DNA from: an uncultured Pelagibacteraceae bacterium
GTDB taxonomy: Bacteria > Pseudomonadota > Alphaproteobacteria > Pelagibacterales > Pelagibacteraceae
Length of the DNA stretch: 64,000 nucleotides
Reading direction: 5' to 3'
Assembly (NCBI GenBank): GCA_902551755.1
Contig: CACDEB010000002.1
Location: 1 to 64,000, forward strand
Shown here: positions 9,506 through 17,711 of the stretch, piece by piece
Layout: the number at the start of each line of letters is the position of its first letter
How positions within the stretch are numbered: position 1 is the stretch's first letter
Notes under the pieces: generated by a model
Told to the model about the DNA's origin: nothing
Databases searched by the model: none
What the model saw: only the letters and a program-made list of their open reading frames with translations
Made by a program: the position numbers and the translations under genes

Positions 9506-9790
9506 ATGAAATATTTTGTATATTTATTAGTGTCAAAAAAAAATTGTAAGATTTCTTCTTATGTTGGAATGACTAAAGATCTAAGTAAAAGGATCACTCT
9601 TCATAACTCTTCTAAAGGAGCCAAATATACCAGGGGAAAAAAATGGTTTTTAGCTTATAAAAAATCTTACAATTCTAAATCAAAAGCCTTAAAAGAGGAA
9701 TATAGTCTCAAAAAAGACAAAAAAAAAAGGGAGAAAATTAAACTAAGATTTAATTTTAAAAATGAAAATTTCAATACTTTTACCTTATAA
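9506..9790 (+). CDS. GIY-YIG nuclease-domain protein (UPF0213-like)
   Basis: A 94-residue stand-alone GIY-YIG domain. The first motif is the VYLLVS strand and the second is YVG (19-21), followed by KRITLHN with the conserved Arg, and a Glu near residue 64. Proteins like this act on DNA, but cellular roles are poorly defined. Its ATG is 2 nt after tRNA-Glu CCA, leaving no room for a normal ribosome-binding site. Its 3' end overlaps the next gene by 29 nt. Confidence 0.82.
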   Translation: MKYFVYLLVSKKNCKISSYVGMTKDLSKRITLHNSSKGAKYTRGKKWFLAYKKSYNSKSKALKEEYSLKKDKKKREKIKLRFNFKNENFNTFTL

Positions 9791-11873
9791 GGAAAACTTT
9801 TCACCCCAATATCCAGGAGCTGTTTCATTGTTTATTAAATCTATGAATAAGTTAAGTATTTATAAAAAAGAAATTACTGTATATGGTTCGACAGATCTCA
9901 AAGAAAAATTTTCAGATAATTATATTAATATTCAATTAAAAAAAAGTTTTTTAAAAAGTCAAACACGTGATTATGTCAATAAATTTGTAGAATTACATAA
10001 AGATCAAAATACTGATGTTATTGAGATTCATAATAGACCTAATTATGTTGATTTTTTAAAATCTTTAAACTCAAAAAAAGTTTTATATTTTCACAATGAC
10101 CCTATATCGATGATAGGTTCTAAATCAGCATTAGAGAGAAAAGAATTAATTAGAAGTTGTGCAAAAATTATTTTTAATAGTGAGTGGTCCAAAAAACAGT
10201 TTTTGAAAAAGCTTGATAAATTTTATCATAAATCTGAAAAGCTGGAAGTAATACACCAATCAATTGATAAAGAGGAAGTTGATATCAATAAAAAAGAAAA
10301 ATTAATTACTTTCGTAGGAAAACTAAATTCGGCAAAAGGTTACGATTTATTTGGTAAAGCTATTTTAAGAATATTAGACAAACACAAAGACTGGAAATCT
10401 ATTGTAATTGGAGATGAACCAAGAGAAAAGCTTATTTTCAAACATAGGAATCTTAAAGTTCTAGGTTTCCAAAATCATACAAGAGTTTTGAATATTTTTA
10501 AGAAAACAAGTATCGCAGTAGCTTGCTCAAGATGGGAGGAGCCTTTCGGTAGAACAAGCTTAGAAGCATCAAGTCGTGGTTGCGCAGTTATAGTTTCAAA
10601 CAGAGGGGGTTTACCGGAAACTATTACAAATGGTATTATTGTTAGAAATTTGAACGATAAAAATCTATATAATTCCATTAATAAATTAATTAAGAATAAT
10701 AAACAAAGAAAAAATTTACAGAAATCTTCTTTAAAAAACTTCTATTTAACTGATGAATACATTTGTAAAAAAATAGACAATTATCGAGAAAAAATTGTAA
10801 ATCAAAAATTAAATTTAAATGGATCTTTAAATTTAAAGAAATTAAAAATTTTACATGTAACCAACTTTAATGAAAGACATAACGGAAGATTATTTTATAA
10901 TACAGGAAAAAGGATTAATAACGGGCTTATAAGACTAAATCATAGCGTTTTAGAATTTAGTGATAGAGATATAGTTAGTTATTATAGAAGTTTAAATGAT
11001 ATCAATGGTTCAAAAAGACTAAATAAAAAATTAATTGAAGTAATAAGCAACTATGTTCCAGATATAATTATCCTCGGCCATGCTGATCTAATTAAAAAAG
11101 AAACTTTAAGTTTTATTAAAAAAAATTATCCTAATATAAAAATGTGCCAGTGGTTTTTAGATAGAATGGACACACAATGGTTAAGCAATAAAAAAAGATT
11201 TTTAGATAAAATTGATATGATGGATGCAAGTTTTTGTACGACAGAGCCTAAATCACTCAATATACCGAATAAGTATAAGGTTTTTTATATACCAAATCCT
11301 GTAGATGAGTCTTTTGAGAAATTAGAGAATTATAAAAATAAGAATTTCAATAATGATGTTTTTTTTGCAATGAGCCATGGTGTTCATAGAGGTGTGCTCA
11401 AAAAAGGTAAGTTCGATCAAAGGGAAAATTTTATAAATAAATTAATTTCTGTGACTCCAAATATAAGATTTGATTTATATGGAATGAATGGAGTTCAACC
11501 AGTTTGGGCAGATAATTATTTATATGCAATATCACAATCAAAAATAGGTTTAAACTTAAGTCAAGGTAAACCAGCCCAGTTTTATTCTAGTGATAGATTT
11601 GCTCAACTAATTGGAAACGGTTTATTAGTAATGGTTGATGAAAAAACAAAAATAGGAAACTTTTTTAATAGAGATGAAATTATTCTTTATAAAAATGTTA
11701 ATGATTTATCGTCAAAAATAATAAAATACAGTAATGATAACAAGTTAAGATGTAAAATTGCGAAAAAAGGTAGAGATAAATACTTCAAATATTTTAATTC
11801 TACAATCGTAGCTAATTTTATAGTGAACAAAACCATTGGAACAAAGAAAAAATTTTTTTGGGAAAATGTTTAA
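9762..11873 (+). CDS. Two-domain glycosyltransferase (GT4-like N-terminus, CgeB-like C-terminus)
   Basis: A 703-residue protein with two tandem GT-B-type units. Residues about 1-345 look like a GT4 enzyme: VGKLNSAKGYDLF opens the donor-binding half, and EEPFGRTSLEASSRGCAVI is the E-x7-E type sugar-nucleotide site. Residues about 356-703 restart with KLKILHVTNFNERHNG and end in GLNLSQGKPAQFYSSDRFAQ, resembling CgeB/DUF3880 glycosyltransferases. It probably adds two sugars in surface polysaccharide synthesis. It is followed directly by a GT2 gene. Confidence 0.8.
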   Translation: MKISILLPYKENFSPQYPGAVSLFIKSMNKLSIYKKEITVYGSTDLKEKFSDNYINIQLKKSFLKSQTRDYVNKFVELHKDQNTDVIEIHNRPNYVDFLKSLNSKKVLYFHNDPISMIGSKSALERKELIRSCAKIIFNSEWSKKQFLKKLDKFYHKSEKLEVIHQSIDKEEVDINKKEKLITFVGKLNSAKGYDLFGKAILRILDKHKDWKSIVIGDEPREKLIFKHRNLKVLGFQNHTRVLNIFKKTSIAVACSRWEEPFGRTSLEASSRGCAVIVSNRGGLPETITNGIIVRNLNDKNLYNSINKLIKNNKQRKNLQKSSLKNFYLTDEYICKKIDNYREKIVNQKLNLNGSLNLKKLKILHVTNFNERHNGRLFYNTGKRINNGLIRLNHSVLEFSDRDIVSYYRSLNDINGSKRLNKKLIEVISNYVPDIIILGHADLIKKETLSFIKKNYPNIKMCQWFLDRMDTQWLSNKKRFLDKIDMMDASFCTTEPKSLNIPNKYKVFYIPNPVDESFEKLENYKNKNFNNDVFFAMSHGVHRGVLKKGKFDQRENFINKLISVTPNIRFDLYGMNGVQPVWADNYLYAISQSKIGLNLSQGKPAQFYSSDRFAQLIGNGLLVMVDEKTKIGNFFNRDEIILYKNVNDLSSKIIKYSNDNKLRCKIAKKGRDKYFKYFNSTIVANFIVNKTIGTKKKFFWENV

Positions 11874-12743
11874 ATGTTTTCGATAATTATTCCTACATTT
11901 AATAATTTAGATTATCTAAAATTATGTATTAAAAGTATTCGACAAAACTCAAAATATACACATCAAATTATTCCTCATGTAAATATTGGCGAAGACGGGA
12001 CATGTGATTTTTTAAAAGATGAGAATATTGATTTTACTTTTACTAAGTACAATTCAGGAATTTGTGAAGGAATGAATACAGCATCAAAAAAGTCGAAATT
12101 TAAATATATATTATACTCTCATGACGACTTTTATTTTTGTCCGGGTTGGGATGAAGTCTTAAAAAATGAGGTTGATGCTATTGGCCACAATAACTTTTAT
12201 TTATCTGGAGTTATGATGAATAATGGACCAATCAAATTCAATGCTGGATCAGATATTAAAAATTTTGACGAAAATAAAGTTTTAAATGAATACCAAAATT
12301 ACAATCATTATGATTTTCAGGGATCGACATGGGCACCGCATCTTCTGCATAGAGACTTATGGGAAAAGGTAGGGGGTTTTAGTGAGGAATTCTTTCCTGG
12401 CACTGGTTCAGATCCTGATTTAAACATGAAGTTATGGAAAGAGGGAGTAAGAGTATTTAAAGGAGTTAATAATTGTAAAGTTTATCATTTTGGCTCAATA
12501 GTCACACGAAAATATAAAAATCATCCAACAATTATCACAGAATCGGGCAGCAAAGGTGGAAAAATTTTTCTTTTAAAATGGGGTATAACAATTAAATTTT
12601 TTAAAAAATTTTATTTAAGATCAGACCAAAAATATGATGGACCTTTAAATAAACCAATTAAAAATTTAAACTTTTTTATTAAACTTATGTTATGTAAATT
12701 AAACTATATATATCTTAAATTAATTAATAATTTTAAAAAATGA
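11874..12743 (+). CDS. Family 2 glycosyltransferase
   Basis: A 289-residue GT-A fold enzyme. It opens with FSIIIPTFNNLDYLKLCI, the usual nucleotide-binding start, and the metal-binding acidic motif is SHDDF (about 82-86). The acceptor-side SDPDLNMKLWKEGVRVF is typical of GT2. It begins 0 nt after the previous stop and overlaps the next gene by 4 nt. Donor and acceptor sugars are unknown. Confidence 0.85.
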   Translation: MFSIIIPTFNNLDYLKLCIKSIRQNSKYTHQIIPHVNIGEDGTCDFLKDENIDFTFTKYNSGICEGMNTASKKSKFKYILYSHDDFYFCPGWDEVLKNEVDAIGHNNFYLSGVMMNNGPIKFNAGSDIKNFDENKVLNEYQNYNHYDFQGSTWAPHLLHRDLWEKVGGFSEEFFPGTGSDPDLNMKLWKEGVRVFKGVNNCKVYHFGSIVTRKYKNHPTIITESGSKGGKIFLLKWGITIKFFKKFYLRSDQKYDGPLNKPIKNLNFFIKLMLCKLNYIYLKLINNFKK

Positions 12744-13549
12744 GCGACTTATATATCTACTGTCTGACATCAAAAAAATATAATCTTTTTAAATATTTAC
12801 CATTGAATATAATTCCCTTAGGTCTTGGGGATAGTGTTTATCCTAAAGACTTTTTAAATGAAAAATTAGGTATAAACATTTCAAAACATAATAAATATCT
12901 TGCTGAAATGACTGGAATATATTGGGTTTATAAAAACCAAATAAACAAATTTAAAAATGATGATTGGATTGGTTTTTGTCATTATAGAAGGTTTTGGCTT
13001 AATGATTTATATAATCAAAATCACAAAATAAAATCATCCCTGATCTCCAAATTACTCATAAATAATGGAAAATTTAAAAAATTTGATGTTATACTTGCTC
13101 AACCAACAAAACTTAAGAGAGAAACAATCATGGATCATTTCATCAATAATCATGGTGACAAAATGATTTTTGAAGCAATAAATTTTTTGGATGAACAAAC
13201 TGCGAAAGATTTTAAAGTTTATCTTAATAATAGAGAATTTAGTTGTTGCAACATGTTTATCACAAAGCCGAAAATTCTAATAGATTATTGTGAATTTGTT
13301 TTTCCATATTTACTCAAGATACTTAAATATTGCGAAGATAATAATCTATGCACTGGCAAAAATACCAAGTTACCAGCTTATTTTATTGAGAGATTTACCT
13401 CTTTTTGGTTTCATAAAAACACAAATGTTAGTTATTTATCTTATGCTCAATTAAATAATTTTTTTGCTTCTGATTTTTTAAATAAATTTATAAATACATT
13501 TAAGTTACCTGGGACTTTTATGTTTTATCCAACAGTTTTAGATATATAA
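12740..13549 (+). CDS. DUF4422 domain protein, probable glycosyltransferase
   Basis: A 269-residue protein with the DUF4422 signature: KYLAEMTGIYWVYKN, then GFCHYRRFW near residue 78, and a Cys-containing SCCNMFITKP. The domain occurs in capsule and exopolysaccharide clusters and is thought to be a glycosyltransferase. It overlaps the preceding GT2 by 4 nt and lies 8 nt before glf, supporting a shared glycan pathway. Confidence 0.78.
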   Translation: MSDLYIYCLTSKKYNLFKYLPLNIIPLGLGDSVYPKDFLNEKLGINISKHNKYLAEMTGIYWVYKNQINKFKNDDWIGFCHYRRFWLNDLYNQNHKIKSSLISKLLINNGKFKKFDVILAQPTKLKRETIMDHFINNHGDKMIFEAINFLDEQTAKDFKVYLNNREFSCCNMFITKPKILIDYCEFVFPYLLKILKYCEDNNLCTGKNTKLPAYFIERFTSFWFHKNTNVSYLSYAQLNNFFASDFLNKFINTFKLPGTFMFYPTVLDI

Positions 13550-13557
13550 TGTGAGAA

Positions 13558-14679
13558 ATGATTGAGTCAGATGTGATTATTGTTGGAGGAGGACCAGTAG
13601 GATGTGTTTTAGCTAATAAGTTATCAAATGAATTGAACTTAAAATGCTTGATAATTGAAAAAAGAAACCATATTGCCGGAAATTGCTACGATGAATACAA
13701 TAAAAAAGGATTATTATACCACAAATATGGTCCTCATTATTTAAGATTCAAAAATCGAAAGACTCTAAATTACTTATCTAAATTTACAAAATGGATACCT
13801 GGAGAATATATAGTCAAATCATATGTAAATAAAAAATTATACCCTATACCAATAAATCTCGAAACTTTAGAAATGTTTTTTAACAGAAAATTTAATTCAA
13901 AAAAAGATGTCGTGGATTTCTTGGATAAAAAGAAAATAAAACTAAAAAAAATTAAGAACGCAGAAGATTTTATTCTATCAAAGTTGGGTAAAGAAATTTA
14001 TGAGAATTTTTATAAAAATTACACGATTAAACAATGGGGCATACATCCTAGAAATCTGTCTAAAACCATAACGGGAAGACTTCCCATTAGAATTAATCGT
14101 AATCCGTATTATGTTAAGGAAAAACTGAGATTAATGCCCAAAAAAGGTTTTACTGAAATGTTTAAAAAGATGATTAATAATAAAAATGTTACGGTTAGAT
14201 TAAATACTGATTTTAATAAAATTAAAAGAAATTTACGATTTAAACATTTCCTTATTTATACCGGAGAACCGGATAGGTATTTTAATTATAAGTATGGAAA
14301 GTTAAACTGGAGATCTTTAATTTTCAAGTTTAAGAACCATAAAAAGAAACTTTTACAAAAATGTGTTCAGTATAATTATCCCAATGATTATAAGTACACC
14401 AGAACTGTTGAAATAAAACATGTGACTAAGCAAAAAAGCAATTATACAGTTATTTCAAAGGAATACCCAACCAATAAAGGTGATCCTTATTATCCCATAA
14501 TAAATGATAAGAACCTGAGATTGTTCAAAAAATATGAAAAATTGATGAATAAAGAGGCTAAGAATAATATTTTTTTTGAGGGTAGGTTAGCCAGATACAC
14601 CTATTATAATACCGACGAAGTGATCGAAAGAGCTCTAGATCTATACTTAAATTTAAAAAAAAAATTCAAAAAAATTTAA
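13558..14679 (+). CDS. glf: UDP-galactopyranose mutase
   Basis: Converts UDP-galactopyranose to UDP-galactofuranose, the donor for Galf-containing surface glycans, using reduced FAD. The N-terminal dinucleotide fold is IIVGGGPVGCVLA (7-19), followed by the EKRNHIAGNCYDE segment, NYTIKQWGIHP in the substrate region, and a C-terminal EGRLARYTYYNTDEVI close to the family's FAD end motif. 373 residues is the expected length. The neighbouring glycosyltransferases may include the galactofuranosyl transferase. Confidence 0.88.
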   Translation: MIESDVIIVGGGPVGCVLANKLSNELNLKCLIIEKRNHIAGNCYDEYNKKGLLYHKYGPHYLRFKNRKTLNYLSKFTKWIPGEYIVKSYVNKKLYPIPINLETLEMFFNRKFNSKKDVVDFLDKKKIKLKKIKNAEDFILSKLGKEIYENFYKNYTIKQWGIHPRNLSKTITGRLPIRINRNPYYVKEKLRLMPKKGFTEMFKKMINNKNVTVRLNTDFNKIKRNLRFKHFLIYTGEPDRYFNYKYGKLNWRSLIFKFKNHKKKLLQKCVQYNYPNDYKYTRTVEIKHVTKQKSNYTVISKEYPTNKGDPYYPIINDKNLRLFKKYEKLMNKEAKNNIFFEGRLARYTYYNTDEVIERALDLYLNLKKKFKKI

Positions 14680-14681
14680 AA

Positions 14682-15545
14682 TTAAAAATCTTCAATACGT
14701 TTGAAGGATTTGTTATTCATTATTGAGTTTATTAAGCCATTTAATCTAATTTGGTATTTTGATTTAGTTACTTTATTACCAGAAATAGTATTAAGACAAA
14801 TCCTAAAGATTATTCTTAATAAAACAGGCAAAAACAGGACAAGGGCTGTTAATTTGCCGTATCTTTTTCTATAATAATAAAACTTTGACCAAATGAAATG
14901 CCATGAATACAGACTCTTAAGTTTACTAAGTTCTTCTTCATTTTTTGTTTCAACAGATGTACCGATATCATGATATACTTTTTGAGAGTTTACTTGGTAA
15001 ATCTTAAAGTTATTTTTATTTGATCTAAAACAATAATCAGTTTCTTCAAAATAAAGGAAGAAATTTTCATCAAATCCTCTATTTTTATCAAATACCTCAG
15101 AACAAAAAAACATTGCGGATCCACTTATTGACTCTATTAATCCATATTTTTCATTTATATTCGATTGCTTATGTGATTTCTCACTTACATTTTCAAATCT
15201 AGGTCCCAAAGCTCCAAAATTATCATTTAACTCTTTTGCTGATTCATAAAAAGCACTGATTAATTTATCATCGATTTTCTGCATATCTGGATTCAAAACA
15301 AAAAAGTATTTCGTGGCAACATGTGTCCTTGCTAGATTTATTGCACTTCCATATCCATTATTTTCAGAAAATATTATTTCTATTTTTTTTCCTAGTTTAG
15401 AAAGCTCAATATCTATTGATTTATCTAAAGAGTTTTCAACTATTATTATTTTAATATTATTTGAAATATCCTTAATTAAATTGGTTAATTTCTTTTTACT
15501 TTTATGTGAAACTATGACTATTGTAATATTATTAGCAAAATTCAT
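14682..15545 (-). CDS. Family 2 glycosyltransferase (rhamnosyltransferase-like)
   Basis: A 287-residue GT2 enzyme read opposite to the glycan genes, with its stop 2 nt from the glf stop. Motifs are ITIVIVSHKSKKKL at the start, NNGYGSAINLA, the acidic NPDM near residues 85-88, and FLYFEETDYCFR, characteristic of GT2 dTDP-sugar transferases. A hydrophobic segment (LVLFLPVLLRIIFRI) near residue 245 suggests membrane attachment. Confidence 0.83.
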   Translation of the reverse strand: MNFANNITIVIVSHKSKKKLTNLIKDISNNIKIIIVENSLDKSIDIELSKLGKKIEIIFSENNGYGSAINLARTHVATKYFFVLNPDMQKIDDKLISAFYESAKELNDNFGALGPRFENVSEKSHKQSNINEKYGLIESISGSAMFFCSEVFDKNRGFDENFFLYFEETDYCFRSNKNNFKIYQVNSQKVYHDIGTSVETKNEEELSKLKSLYSWHFIWSKFYYYRKRYGKLTALVLFLPVLLRIIFRICLNTISGNKVTKSKYQIRLNGLINSIMNNKSFKRIEDF

Positions 15546-15557
15546 TATATCTTACTT

Positions 15558-16511
15558 TTATACCTTTATCTTATTCAGAGCATTATTTTTAAAGATATTT
15601 GCTTCTTTAATATATCTTCTTACCATTTGAGTTGTTTTATGACCTGTCATAGCCATTATGCTTCTTTCATCAGCACCAGACTCAGCAGCTACAGTAGCAA
15701 ATCCTGATCTTAAACTATGCCCTGCAAAGTTTTTATTTTCAATACCTGCTAAATTTAGATATTCTTTCATTAATAAAACTACTGATTGATCTGTTAGTCT
15801 TTTATCCGTTAATATTGAGCCTTTGGAAAATCTTCTAAAAATAGGTCCTGATTTTACTTTTGATATTTCCAGCCATTTTTTTAAACTGGTTACCGGGCAA
15901 TAAGTTTCATTAGTAAAGTAGGGCAGCCCCTTAATCATTCCTTCCCCAAATTGATCTGTTTTTGATCTTCTAATGGTAATTTTGAGACCTTCAGGAACAA
16001 ATTCTAAGTCCTCATGATCAATTGAAATCAACTCAGTTCTTCTAAATCCACCTCCAAACCCTATTAATATAATTGATCTATCTCTTAATTTTTTTATTTC
16101 CTCAATTTTTTGTTGATCAATTACATTAACTATTGATTTTAAATGATTGATTAATATAGGTTTTTTTCCTTTCTGAAAGCTTCCTTTAACCCTTTTTATA
16201 CCTAATAAATTTTCAGTAATTATTGGATGTTTTGTATCTAAATAATACCCTTTTAACTTATGAACCATACTTATTGATACCAATCTTCTTCTTAAAGTGC
16301 TTATTTTTGAATTTTTGGATAGATGAGTTAAGTAAATAGAGACTATCTTTGGCTCTGTTGGTAAAGAATTTAAACCATGTTTAGTGCAAAAAGCTCCAAA
16401 GTCTTTGAAATCCGACTTATAAGCTCTTAACGTATTATTTGCTTTTGAGCTTTTAAGATTATTTAAAGTTGCTTCATGAAGCGATTTAAGATCTGTTGTT
16501 AATTTATTCAT
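15558..16511 (-). CDS. Tyrosine recombinase, Cre-like
   Basis: A 317-residue site-specific recombinase. The N-terminal core-binding domain (about 1-110) has a Cre-like pattern: NTLRAYKSDFKDFGAFC, PTEPKIVSIYL. The catalytic set is Arg157 (FRRTEL), Lys184 (RRSKT), His265/Arg268 (GHSLRSG), His291 (TGHKT) and Tyr300 (RRYIKEA), so the active site looks complete. ATG 16511 is chosen over an in-frame TTG at 16529 because that codon lies inside a long dyad at 16513-16547. It could be an integrase that moved the adjacent glycan genes, or a resident resolvase. Confidence 0.88.
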   Translation of the reverse strand: MNKLTTDLKSLHEATLNNLKSSKANNTLRAYKSDFKDFGAFCTKHGLNSLPTEPKIVSIYLTHLSKNSKISTLRRRLVSISMVHKLKGYYLDTKHPIITENLLGIKRVKGSFQKGKKPILINHLKSIVNVIDQQKIEEIKKLRDRSIILIGFGGGFRRTELISIDHEDLEFVPEGLKITIRRSKTDQFGEGMIKGLPYFTNETYCPVTSLKKWLEISKVKSGPIFRRFSKGSILTDKRLTDQSVVLLMKEYLNLAGIENKNFAGHSLRSGFATVAAESGADERSIMAMTGHKTTQMVRRYIKEANIFKNNALNKIKV

Positions 16512-16512
16512 A

Positions 16513-16547
16513 ATTACTATTGATAACAATTAATTATCATTAGTAAT
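16513..16547. repeat. Lox-like inverted repeat beside the recombinase start
   Basis: The left arm ATTACTATTGATAA (16513-16526) and right arm TTATCATTAGTAAT (16534-16547) are complementary at 13 of 14 positions around a 7-nt spacer, CAATTAA. That is the layout of a tyrosine-recombinase crossover site, and it lies 1 nt from the recombinase ATG. It could equally be an operator. In DNA this AT-rich, dyads of similar quality occur by chance, so position carries most of the weight. Confidence 0.5.
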
Positions 16548-16593
16548 AATATAAGTCATTTAAGATGTCAAGCAAATAAGTTAATTTGTTTTT

Positions 16594-16758
16594 ATGTTAA
16601 AATATATAATTTTAGCTTTAGCTTTTATTGGAATAGTTTTCTTTGTGCTGTTTAAATTTGAAAAATTGGATAAGCCTGAGAAAAAGAAATCCATATATAT
16701 TTTGATAGCAGTATTAATTTTAAGCTTAGCTGGAATTGTTTCATTATTGTACTTTTAG
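16594..16758 (+). CDS. Small two-helix membrane protein (54 aa), unknown function
   Basis: A short frame from ATG 16594 to TAG 16756-16758. The product has a hydrophobic N-terminal helix (LKYIILALAFIGIVFFVLF), a charged turn (KFEKLDKPEKKKS), and a second hydrophobic helix (IYILIAVLILSLAGIVSLL). The layout is that of a real hairpin membrane peptide, with the Lys/Glu loop probably cytoplasmic. It lies between the recombinase and the structured RNA. Not recognised as a named family. Confidence 0.55.
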   Translation: MLKYIILALAFIGIVFFVLFKFEKLDKPEKKKSIYILIAVLILSLAGIVSLLYF

Positions 16759-16791
16759 AGTTATTAACGTTATTCACACCTATCCTATTTA

Positions 16792-16808
16792 ATCGCTTAA
16801 AAAGTGAT
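16792..16808 (+). other. Small hairpin upstream of the structured RNA
   Basis: ATCGCTT (16792-16798) pairs with AAGTGAT (16802-16808, one G-T pair) around an AAA loop. It may be the 5' element of the RNA that follows or a chance fold; no T-run follows it. Confidence 0.3.
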
Positions 16809-16844
16809 ACATTCAACCTAAGCAGTTTGTTATTGTGAAATGAA

Positions 16845-17027
16845 TTAAGGGGCAACCCTTAACTGGCCGACTGGGGAAAGGCCGAGAGGACCAAGCCCAG
16901 GGGGCAGAAAGTCTTACGGAGTAGCGCTAAAATCGTAGGGCGGAAGGCATGGCGGTAGCGCATACAACGACGTGCCAAAACTACTGTTCTTTGCACCGTA
17001 AAAAGTGCAAGGAAACAGGGGTTTTTT
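16845..17027 (+). ncRNA. GC-rich structured RNA of unknown class
   Basis: Positions 16861-16980 contain 70 G or C out of 120 in a genome that is mostly A and T, and no protein frame explains it. Helices visible: TTAAGGG/CCCTTAA (16845-16862) capped by GCAA; CTGGG/CCCAG (16871-16900) enclosing GGCC-GAGA-GGACC; AGTAG (16920-16924) with CTACT (16981-16985); GGCATG (16946-16951) with CGTGCC (16971-16976), crossing CGCTA (16925-16929) with TAGCG (16956-16960), a possible pseudoknot. A terminator ends it. Hallmarks of RNase P, tmRNA, SRP and 6S RNA were not seen. It may be a free RNA or a leader of the MGMT gene. Confidence 0.75.
16984..17027 (+). terminator. Intrinsic terminator of the structured RNA
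   Basis: The stem 16984-16996 pairs with 17005-17018 (13 pairs, one bulged A, 8-nt loop), followed by GGG and a TTTTTT run at 17022-17027. The T-run fixes plus-strand polarity. It ends 4 nt before the ATG at 17032, so it could also act as an attenuator for that gene. Confidence 0.7.
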
Positions 17028-17031
17028 CTTC

Positions 17032-17301
17032 ATGAAAGGTACTAAATTTCAATTACAAGTATGGAATTATCTTAAAAAGATACCTAAAGGATCTGTAAAA
17101 ACATATAAACAAGTAGCTATAGCAATAAATAAGCCAAAATCAGCTCGTGCGGTTGCTAATGCCTGTGCTAAGAACCCTTATGCTCCAAATATACCTTGTC
17201 ATAGGGTTATTAGGTCTGACGGAGGCCTCGGAGGCTATTCTGGTAGAGGTGGAGTTAATCAAAAATTGAAATTGTTGAGGTCAGAAAAGGTTGATATTTA
17301 G
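17032..17301 (+). CDS. MGMT-type methyltransferase, C-terminal DNA-binding domain only
   Basis: An 89-residue protein equal to the C-terminal domain of O6-alkylguanine-DNA alkyltransferases, which move alkyl groups from guanine O6 to a Cys. It has the helix-turn-helix region (SVKTYKQVAIAINKPKSARAV) and an intact active site PCHRV with Cys56, so it is not an alkyltransferase-like (Trp-substituted) protein. The N-terminal Ada/Ogt domain is absent. ATG 17032 is chosen because the upstream in-frame GTG lies inside the terminator hairpin. No ribosome-binding site is visible. Confidence 0.85.
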   Translation: MKGTKFQLQVWNYLKKIPKGSVKTYKQVAIAINKPKSARAVANACAKNPYAPNIPCHRVIRSDGGLGGYSGRGGVNQKLKLLRSEKVDI

Positions 17302-17711
17302 GGCTTTTTTTCACTCAAAAACCCAATAAAATCAACGTTTTTTTTAATATTTAGTCTATAAATTGATATTATTAATAAATTCAACGATCAGTTGCACCGT
17401 TCTGAGCATAATTCTTAAAATTGACCCCTCTATGGCCGTTTAAATAGCATATTCAATATCTGCATTGGTCTAAAATTATGGAATAACAATAGTATTAGAT
17501 ACCCCCCTTTTTTTGATTTTTCACAGACTTTGAACTAATATTAGTGGCTATTTTAAAGGTTTTTTCATTTTTATCATTAATTTACGGTTTTTTGTTAGTT
17601 TTTTTACCAATAAAATTCTTTTAAAGCTACTAATAATATTCAATAATAACAATGGTTTACAATAATATATGAATGTATTACTTAACTAATAAGTAAACTT
17701 ATATTACCTAT
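17302..17711. other. Gene-free stretch, no recognised feature
   Basis: About 410 nt without a credible frame, the longest in the window. It begins with a weak hairpin GGGCTTTTTT...AAAAACCC (about 17301-17324), contains a CCCCCC-TTTTTTT tract near 17502-17514, and ends with a TTACTT/AAGTAA hairpin (17678-17696) downstream of the minus-strand DMT gene. I see no tRNA, known riboswitch or repeated unit in it. Confidence 0.6.

What the first reader, a model, noticed from the sequence alone, without database searches (positions are those of the whole stretch)
16845..17027. Unassigned GC-rich structured RNA with its own terminator
In a strongly AT-rich window, 16861-16980 has 70 G or C in 120 nt, with several compensated helices, two GNRA tetraloops (GCAA, GAGA), a possible pseudoknot between 16925-16960 and 16946-16976, and an intrinsic terminator. 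Such GC islands in SAR11 have been a successful guide to real RNAs. RNase P, tmRNA, SRP and 6S hallmarks were looked for and not found.
Basis: partly seen in the sequence, partly recalled or inferred. Interest (0 to 1): 0.75.

Follow-up and report, generated by a model that had tools for sequence, protein, structure and literature searches.

The report
IMES-2 noncoding RNA in SAR11
The GC-rich island is a real structured RNA gene, but it is a catalogued one (the marine RNA family IMES-2, whose function I could not find), here shown to have a likely loop-to-loop fold, a conserved upstream region, and a habit of being absent from close relatives.

Summary
The gene is about 190 nt: hairpins P1-P4 plus a terminator hairpin ending near 17027. 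In 98 distinct sequences, 94.3% of cells pair and 32 of 44 pairs have two-sided changes (0/500 shuffles). The suspected pseudoknot is a kissing interaction, 16924-16928 with 16957-16961 (96.9% paired, compensated at 3 of 5 pairs). Conserved upstream elements accompany the RNA in three gene neighbourhoods, which favours a free-standing RNA. It occurs once per genome in 139 of 297 Pelagibacterales genomes, is missing from the same gene junction in 18 of 18 examined relatives without it, and needs at least four gains or losses. 6S RNA (0/34), Hfq (0/35) and ProQ (0/35) were not found in tested SAR11 genomes. Best guess: a trans-acting, protein-binding RNA; function unproven. A known family with added structural and evolutionary detail; modest interest.

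The parts
16761..16778 (+). tandem DnaA-box-like upstream element (TTATTAACG TTATTCACA), of a kind seen upstream of many IMES-2 copies
   Evidence: alignment; pair regex in 22 of 53 IMES-2 loci against 8 hits in 800 kb of sampled SAR11 DNA, one of them an IMES-2 locus. The DnaA-box likeness is recalled, not tested
16791..16810 (+). conserved upstream element around GTGAT (16804-16808)
   Evidence: GTGAT or GCGAT within 110 nt in 122 of 122 distinct upstream stretches; the last such match lies 33-36 nt before Rfam position 1 in 110 of them
16828..16836 (+). probable extended -10 (TG T TATTGT); start of transcription inferred at about 16842-16844
   Evidence: read from sequence and alignment; the consensus scanner found no promoter here
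16838..16978 (+). IMES-2 RNA, full Rfam model
   Evidence: RF02035 158.8 bits, E 9.7e-42, model 1-141 of 141
16845..16862 (+). hairpin P1, GCAA loop
   Evidence: structure; 100% of cells paired in 98 sequences
16863..16907 (+). hairpin P2 with internal loop GAAA/CAAG and GAGA tetraloop
16911..16941 (+). hairpin P3; loop holds one side of the kissing pairing (16924-16928 GCGCU)
   Evidence: 8 of 8 pairs with changes on both sides; kissing pairing
16946..16976 (+). hairpin P4; loop holds the other side (16957-16961 AGCGC)
16984..17027 (+). P5: bulged terminator hairpin 16984-17018, then U-run 17022-17027
   Evidence: fold; 11 of 12 pairs with two-sided changes, 84.9% of cells paired; not flagged by scanner
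17032..17301 (+). neighbour: O6-methylguanine-DNA methyltransferase-like protein, start codon just after the terminator
   Evidence: Pfam PF01035, E 9.7e-33; coordinates
16594..16758 (+). neighbour: 54-aa putative membrane protein (by reading)
   Evidence: no Pfam match; similar small ORFs beside the methyltransferase in relatives, by reading
15558..16529 (-). neighbour: tyrosine recombinase
   Evidence: Pfam PF00589, E 2e-19

Best explanation
The element is the IMES-2 RNA of a Pelagibacterales (SAR11) genome: a free-standing noncoding RNA of about 190 nt with its own upstream promoter-like region and terminator (supported by homology, covariation and conserved flanks; transcription itself not shown). 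It has two modules: a strongly conserved 5' module (P1 GNRA hairpin plus P2) and a 3' module (P3, P4) folded back by a loop-loop kissing helix. Inferred, about 0.4 likely: it works in trans as a compact protein-binding RNA (a small ribonucleoprotein or protein-sequestering RNA), the 5' module being the recognition part and the 3' module a scaffold, without Hfq or ProQ. It is dispensable: several lineages lack it.
For: Identity. Structure. Same RNA with similar upstream elements in three neighbourhoods (recombinase/methyltransferase; mnmA; a third in G001/G007). Module independence: in L040 and L162 P1-P2 is 66/66 and 65/66 identical to L036 while P3-P4 is 29/67 in both, yet L040 keeps the kissing pairing. 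No Hfq or ProQ match in 35 genomes. Conserved GNRA loops and internal loop.
Against: No expression, binding or phenotype data. No protein partner identified. Conserved loops could equally serve base pairing with targets. In the window's neighbourhood the next gene begins within a few bases of the terminator, so an added cis role is possible.
Confidence: 0.6

Rival explanations
1. Base-pairing regulatory sRNA that acts on mRNAs without Hfq or ProQ, using single-stranded stretches (such as the AAA linker between P2 and P3, or the stretch after P4) as part of a seed.
For: Free-standing RNA with terminator; CAGAAA at the P2-P3 junction is kept even in the distant relatives L032 and L033.
Against: Most invariant columns lie in helices, tetraloops, the internal loop or the kissing loops; Hfq and ProQ not found in 35 genomes. 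No target search was done.
Confidence: 0.25
2. Cis attenuator of the downstream methyltransferase: the terminator hairpin holds its ribosome-binding region and a signal toggles read-through.
For: In the window the start codon (17032) follows the U-run (17022-17027) by a few bases; in 25 of 33 loci that my crude pattern caught, the start lies -2 to 10 bases from the first T-run, and the other 8 catches were false matches inside the hairpin.
Against: In the second neighbourhood (mnmA upstream in 26 of 26, an oppositely oriented 233-aa protein gene downstream in 24 of 26) and the third, no methyltransferase follows; in G001 and G007 it lies elsewhere. In 18 of 18 examined relatives without the RNA the gene exists without it.
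Confidence: 0.1
3. A 6S-like RNA that binds RNA polymerase, replacing the 6S RNA not found in these genomes.
For: 6S model RF00013 finds nothing in the own genome and in 0 of 34 relatives while it rings in Caulobacter.
Against: Several short hairpins rather than one long bubbled duplex (the 6S fold is recalled); no Rfam match to 6S at E up to 10; the 20 tested genomes without IMES-2 also lack a 6S match.
Confidence: 0.06
4. Attachment site or passenger of the neighbouring tyrosine recombinase.
For: Recombinase beside it in the first neighbourhood; in L150 the RNA is joined inside the P3 loop to a recombinase reading frame.
Against: No second copy of the P3 or P4 loop region in the window beyond chance; the recombinase lies near the methyltransferase in 18 of 18 loci without the RNA and was not detected in the 26 mnmA-type loci. 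L150 is a single-cell assembly with an inverted join, so most likely an amplification chimera (inference).
Confidence: 0.03

Closest known systems
IMES-2 RNA motif, Rfam RF02035
   Same: Full-length match far above the gathering score; P1-P4 as in the printed Rfam consensus.
   Different: The printed consensus shows nested helices only and ends before the terminator; kissing helix, upstream elements, domain exchange and repeated absence are added here. Whether the original description drew the loop pairing could not be checked (paper not held).
IMES-1 RNA, Rfam RF02034
   Same: Shares the IMES name.
   Different: Not found in 35 SAR11 genomes; no control genome rang either, so this is weak.
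6S RNA, Rfam RF00013
   Same: Similar size (6S model 187 positions), free-standing.
   Different: No match; different architecture.

Membership tests
IMES-2 (RF02035) | covariance model score above the gathering score | tested here: met
   158.8 against 54.7 bits, E 9.7e-42, model 1-141 of 141
IMES-2 (RF02035) | consensus helices P1-P4 formed | tested here: met
   two P2 pairs flagged non-standard in this sequence; 94.3% of cells paired over 98 sequences, kissing helix included; one P4 position is a G.A apposition and never a standard pair
IMES-2 (RF02035) | found in marine bacteria | tested here: met
   139 of 297 Pelagibacterales genomes; 120 of 120 held named contigs have Pelagibacter, Pelagibacteraceae or Pelagibacterales in the title
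IMES-2 (RF02035) | expressed as a discrete RNA | not testable with these tools
   no transcriptome tool; the two 2009 papers I looked for are not held
6S RNA | match to RF00013 | tested here: not met
   none at E up to 10 for 16500-17400; none in the own genome
RNase P, tmRNA, SRP RNA | match to their Rfam models at this locus | tested here: not met
   none listed at E up to 10
cis-regulatory leader (riboswitch or attenuator) | same downstream gene or pathway across occurrences | tested here: not met
   methyltransferase in one neighbourhood only; other downstream genes elsewhere
Hfq- or ProQ-dependent sRNA | chaperone encoded in the genome | tested here: not met
   Hfq 0 of 35 (rings in 5 of 14 controls, E. 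coli and Caulobacter among them); ProQ 0 of 35 (rings in E. coli only)

The most novel reading that the evidence does not exclude
IMES-2 is a two-module ribonucleoprotein RNA of streamlined ocean bacteria in which no Hfq, ProQ or 6S was found: its 5' module is a fixed protein-recognition element, its kissing-loop 3' module is an exchangeable scaffold swapped between lineages by recombination, and it is a dispensable global regulator whose loss marks SAR11 ecotypes.
Probability: 0.15. Interest if true: 0.6.

Novelty: already known. Interest (0 to 1): 0.3.

Why it matters
The RNA itself is catalogued, so the finding is not a discovery. In the searches made here no function for it was found. The kissing helix, the conserved upstream elements, the exchange of whole domains and the clean presence or absence at one gene junction give concrete handles: comparable genomes with and without the gene exist, and mutations that break and restore the loop pairing can be named from natural variants.

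Tried and rejected
Origin of replication: the upstream DnaA-box-like pair suggested oriC; sampled GC skew (20 stretches of 20 kb in each of two closed genomes) puts the RNA near the skew maximum in G015 and mid-arm in G001, not at a minimum. Rejected.

Replacement for 6S: 6S is not found with or without IMES-2 (14 genomes with, 20 without), so there is no complementary pattern.

IMES-1 as a stand-in where IMES-2 is missing: 0 of 35, but nothing rang in the controls either.

Phage carriage: two exact patterns found nothing in viral contigs, and blastn found nothing in phage records. Exact patterns would miss diverged copies.

Divergent copies in genomes without a match: own model R1 gave five weak hits (13-18 bits, L095-L099). 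Four (L095, L096, L098, L099) read as protein-coding sequence (rpoA/rplQ-like by my reading), the fifth was not identified; none matched Rfam. R1 in whole-genome mode missed G001 and G007, which it finds when given the loci, so its genome-wide negative is weak; its negative on the 18 methyltransferase loci, with L118 and L032 ringing as controls, is better evidence, but a diverged copy elsewhere in those genomes is not excluded.

Regulon of the GTGAT upstream element: a pattern search over six genomes gave 15 hits, one of them an IMES-2 locus, against 7 for the reversed control. Of five looked at, three lie in coding sequence by my reading and two do not (L243, before a gene for a periplasmic binding protein by reading, and L254); no RNA family matched in six of these loci. 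No regulon found, two sites left open.

Literature: 'IMES-2' as a whole word occurs in one held paper, a squid genome that lists it as possible environmental contamination (passage read). Further searches (listings only, 12 and 46 empty) showed no paper on its function. PMC2704228 was read as outline, one of two parts of section 5, section 10 and passages; PMC5069720, PMC2864571 and PMC6429828 by passages. Two Nature 2009 papers that I recall as describing IMES RNAs and ocean small RNAs are not held.

Rows used: of 120 loci held, the 80 listed were used for sequence and neighbourhood work and the 40 others only for titles; of these 80, three too close to a contig end were dropped before alignment, and identical cores were merged (130 to 98).

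Full report
The observation. The stretch 16861-16980 holds 70 G or C in 120 bases, and no 120-base stretch outside 16835-16999 in the 64-kb window (28.8% GC) has 68 or more. The strand folds far better than shuffles (-73 kcal/mol, z -4.30, 0 of 200).

What it is. A scan of the whole window against Rfam 15 gives IMES-2 (RF02035) at 16838-16978, plus strand, 158.8 bits against a gathering score of 54.7, E 9.7e-42, over model positions 1-141 of 141. A permissive scan of 16500-17400 lists no other family except two microRNA matches far below their gathering scores. The RNA continues past the Rfam model into a bulged terminator hairpin and a run of six T at 17022-17027; the simple scanner found neither this terminator nor a promoter here.

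Distribution. RF02035 exceeds its cut-off in 139 of 297 Pelagibacterales genomes, one match each, and in 75 of 150 of those at least 90% complete; in the class it rings in 3 of 385, all in the window's own family. An exact pattern from the first helices found 120 stretches in named genome contigs, the scan stopping at its limit; all 120 titles name Pelagibacter, Pelagibacteraceae or Pelagibacterales. Two exact patterns found nothing in viral contigs and blastn found nothing in phage records.

Structure. On 28 sequences with terminator and kissing helix included (alignment not fitted to a structure), 92.5% of cells pair and 37 of 56 pairs have two-sided changes, against 20.2 in shuffles, 0 of 500. 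On 98 distinct sequences (the window's own included) fitted to the nested model, 94.3% of cells pair and 32 of 44 pairs have two-sided changes (shuffled mean 19.0, 0 of 500); sliding the partner by one to three columns drops pairing to 34-42%. The fit leans towards the nested helices, and these shuffles do not keep relatedness. The kissing helix was not part of the fitted model. Taken alone it pairs in 96.9% of cells, 3 of 5 pairs have two-sided changes (9 of 500 shuffles reach this), and 11 cells change on both sides against 1.3 (0 of 500). Against it: the number of further pair types is no higher than in shuffles (388 of 500 reach it), the structure slid by +1 has 16 two-sided cells (though only 31.1% pairing), two of the five pairs never vary, and one pair is broken in 15 of 98 sequences. 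The compensated variants are GUACU/AGUAC (L040, L122, L162), UCGCU/AGCGA (L050, L149, L172) and GCACU/AGUGC (L032, L033), which I count as about three events. L150, probably a chimeric assembly, is among the 98 rows and was not dropped. One position in P4 is a G.A apposition (92 of 96, A.G in 3).

Upstream. Of 122 distinct upstream stretches all carry GTGAT or GCGAT within 110 bases, the last such match 33-36 bases before Rfam position 1 in 110; among 120 anchored rows a C nine bases before the anchor is invariant (the GTGAT columns are invariant by construction). Further up lies a pair of DnaA-box-like sequences; the name is a resemblance from memory. A regular expression for the pair hits 22 of 53 IMES-2 loci and 8 places in 800 kb of sampled SAR11 DNA, one of those an IMES-2 locus.

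Neighbourhood. In the window's neighbourhood the RNA lies between a tyrosine recombinase on the other strand, a small or DUF2938 membrane protein, and an O6-methylguanine-DNA methyltransferase-like gene. Of 80 named loci 54 are of this type, the probable chimera L150 among them, and 26 of a second, in which it follows mnmA (mnmA by Pfam), with recX-like and cysQ-like genes (by reading) further up. In a third (G001, G007) the neighbours differ again. One downstream gene cannot be its constant target. Of 20 same-genus genomes without a match, 18 have a methyltransferase hit; in all 18 loci the recombinase lies within the 2.0-3.3 kb held, on the opposite strand, and model R1 finds no IMES-2 there while it rings in two control loci. 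In eight of these the methyltransferase directly follows the small protein gene with the recombinase start in view. A quick tree of recombinase, methyltransferase and EamA proteins (103 rows: 85 with the RNA, kept of 123 given because they hold both of the first two genes, and 18 without) needs 8 changes of presence, at least 4 forced by starred branches (SH-aLRT only). The tree cannot tell loss from gain and the locus may recombine. The closed genome of strain HTCC1062 seems to lack the gene: the table of GC-rich intergenic regions in PMC2704228 shows none with these flanks; this is inference.

Modularity. In L040 and L162 the P1-P2 half is 66/66 and 65/66 identical to L036 of the same neighbourhood, but the P3-P4 half is 29/67 in both and nearer L122 (49/65 and 46/65). 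This looks like exchange of a whole domain, with the kissing pairing kept.

Mechanism. Not shown. Against a cis role for one gene: three neighbourhoods. Against a chaperone-dependent sRNA: Hfq and ProQ models find nothing in 35 SAR11 genomes while E. coli rings for both, and Caulobacter for Hfq only. Against a 6S replacement: a different fold, and no link between 6S and IMES-2 presence (0 of 34). I commit to a trans-acting protein-binding RNA (about 0.4), then an Hfq-independent base-pairing RNA (0.25).

Verdict. Ordinary in identity; function not found. The added points are the compensated kissing helix, the conserved upstream region, the domain exchange and the patchy presence. Whether the original description already drew the loop pairing could not be checked.

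Noticed in passing
L040 and L162, IMES-2 RNA: First half of the RNA identical or nearly so to related loci (66/66, 65/66 against L036), second half only 29/67: a whole-domain exchange inside one RNA gene.
   Followed up: partly
L150:263-386: IMES-2 broken inside the P3 loop and joined to a recombinase reading frame; single-cell assembly, so probably an amplification chimera.
   Followed up: partly
35 Pelagibacterales genomes: No Hfq and no ProQ match in any, and no 6S match in 34 plus the own genome: SAR11 may lack these usual RNA regulators.
   Followed up: partly
window 9762-15545: Run of glycosyltransferase-like and UDP-galactopyranose-mutase-like genes (by reading of the translations) beside a tyrosine recombinase; the genes left of the recombinase differ between relatives: looks like a surface-sugar island.
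   Followed up: no
window 16511-16550: Near-palindrome (ATTACTATTGATAA...TTATCATTAGTAAT) at the start of the recombinase gene, also seen in relatives without IMES-2: possible operator.
   Followed up: no
G015:C1 near 1338870: IMES-2 lies near the cumulative GC-skew maximum (terminus side) in this closed genome, but not in G001.
   Followed up: partly
window 17005: The longest reading frame of the methyltransferase begins at a GTG inside the terminator hairpin; the likely start is the ATG at 17032.
   Followed up: no
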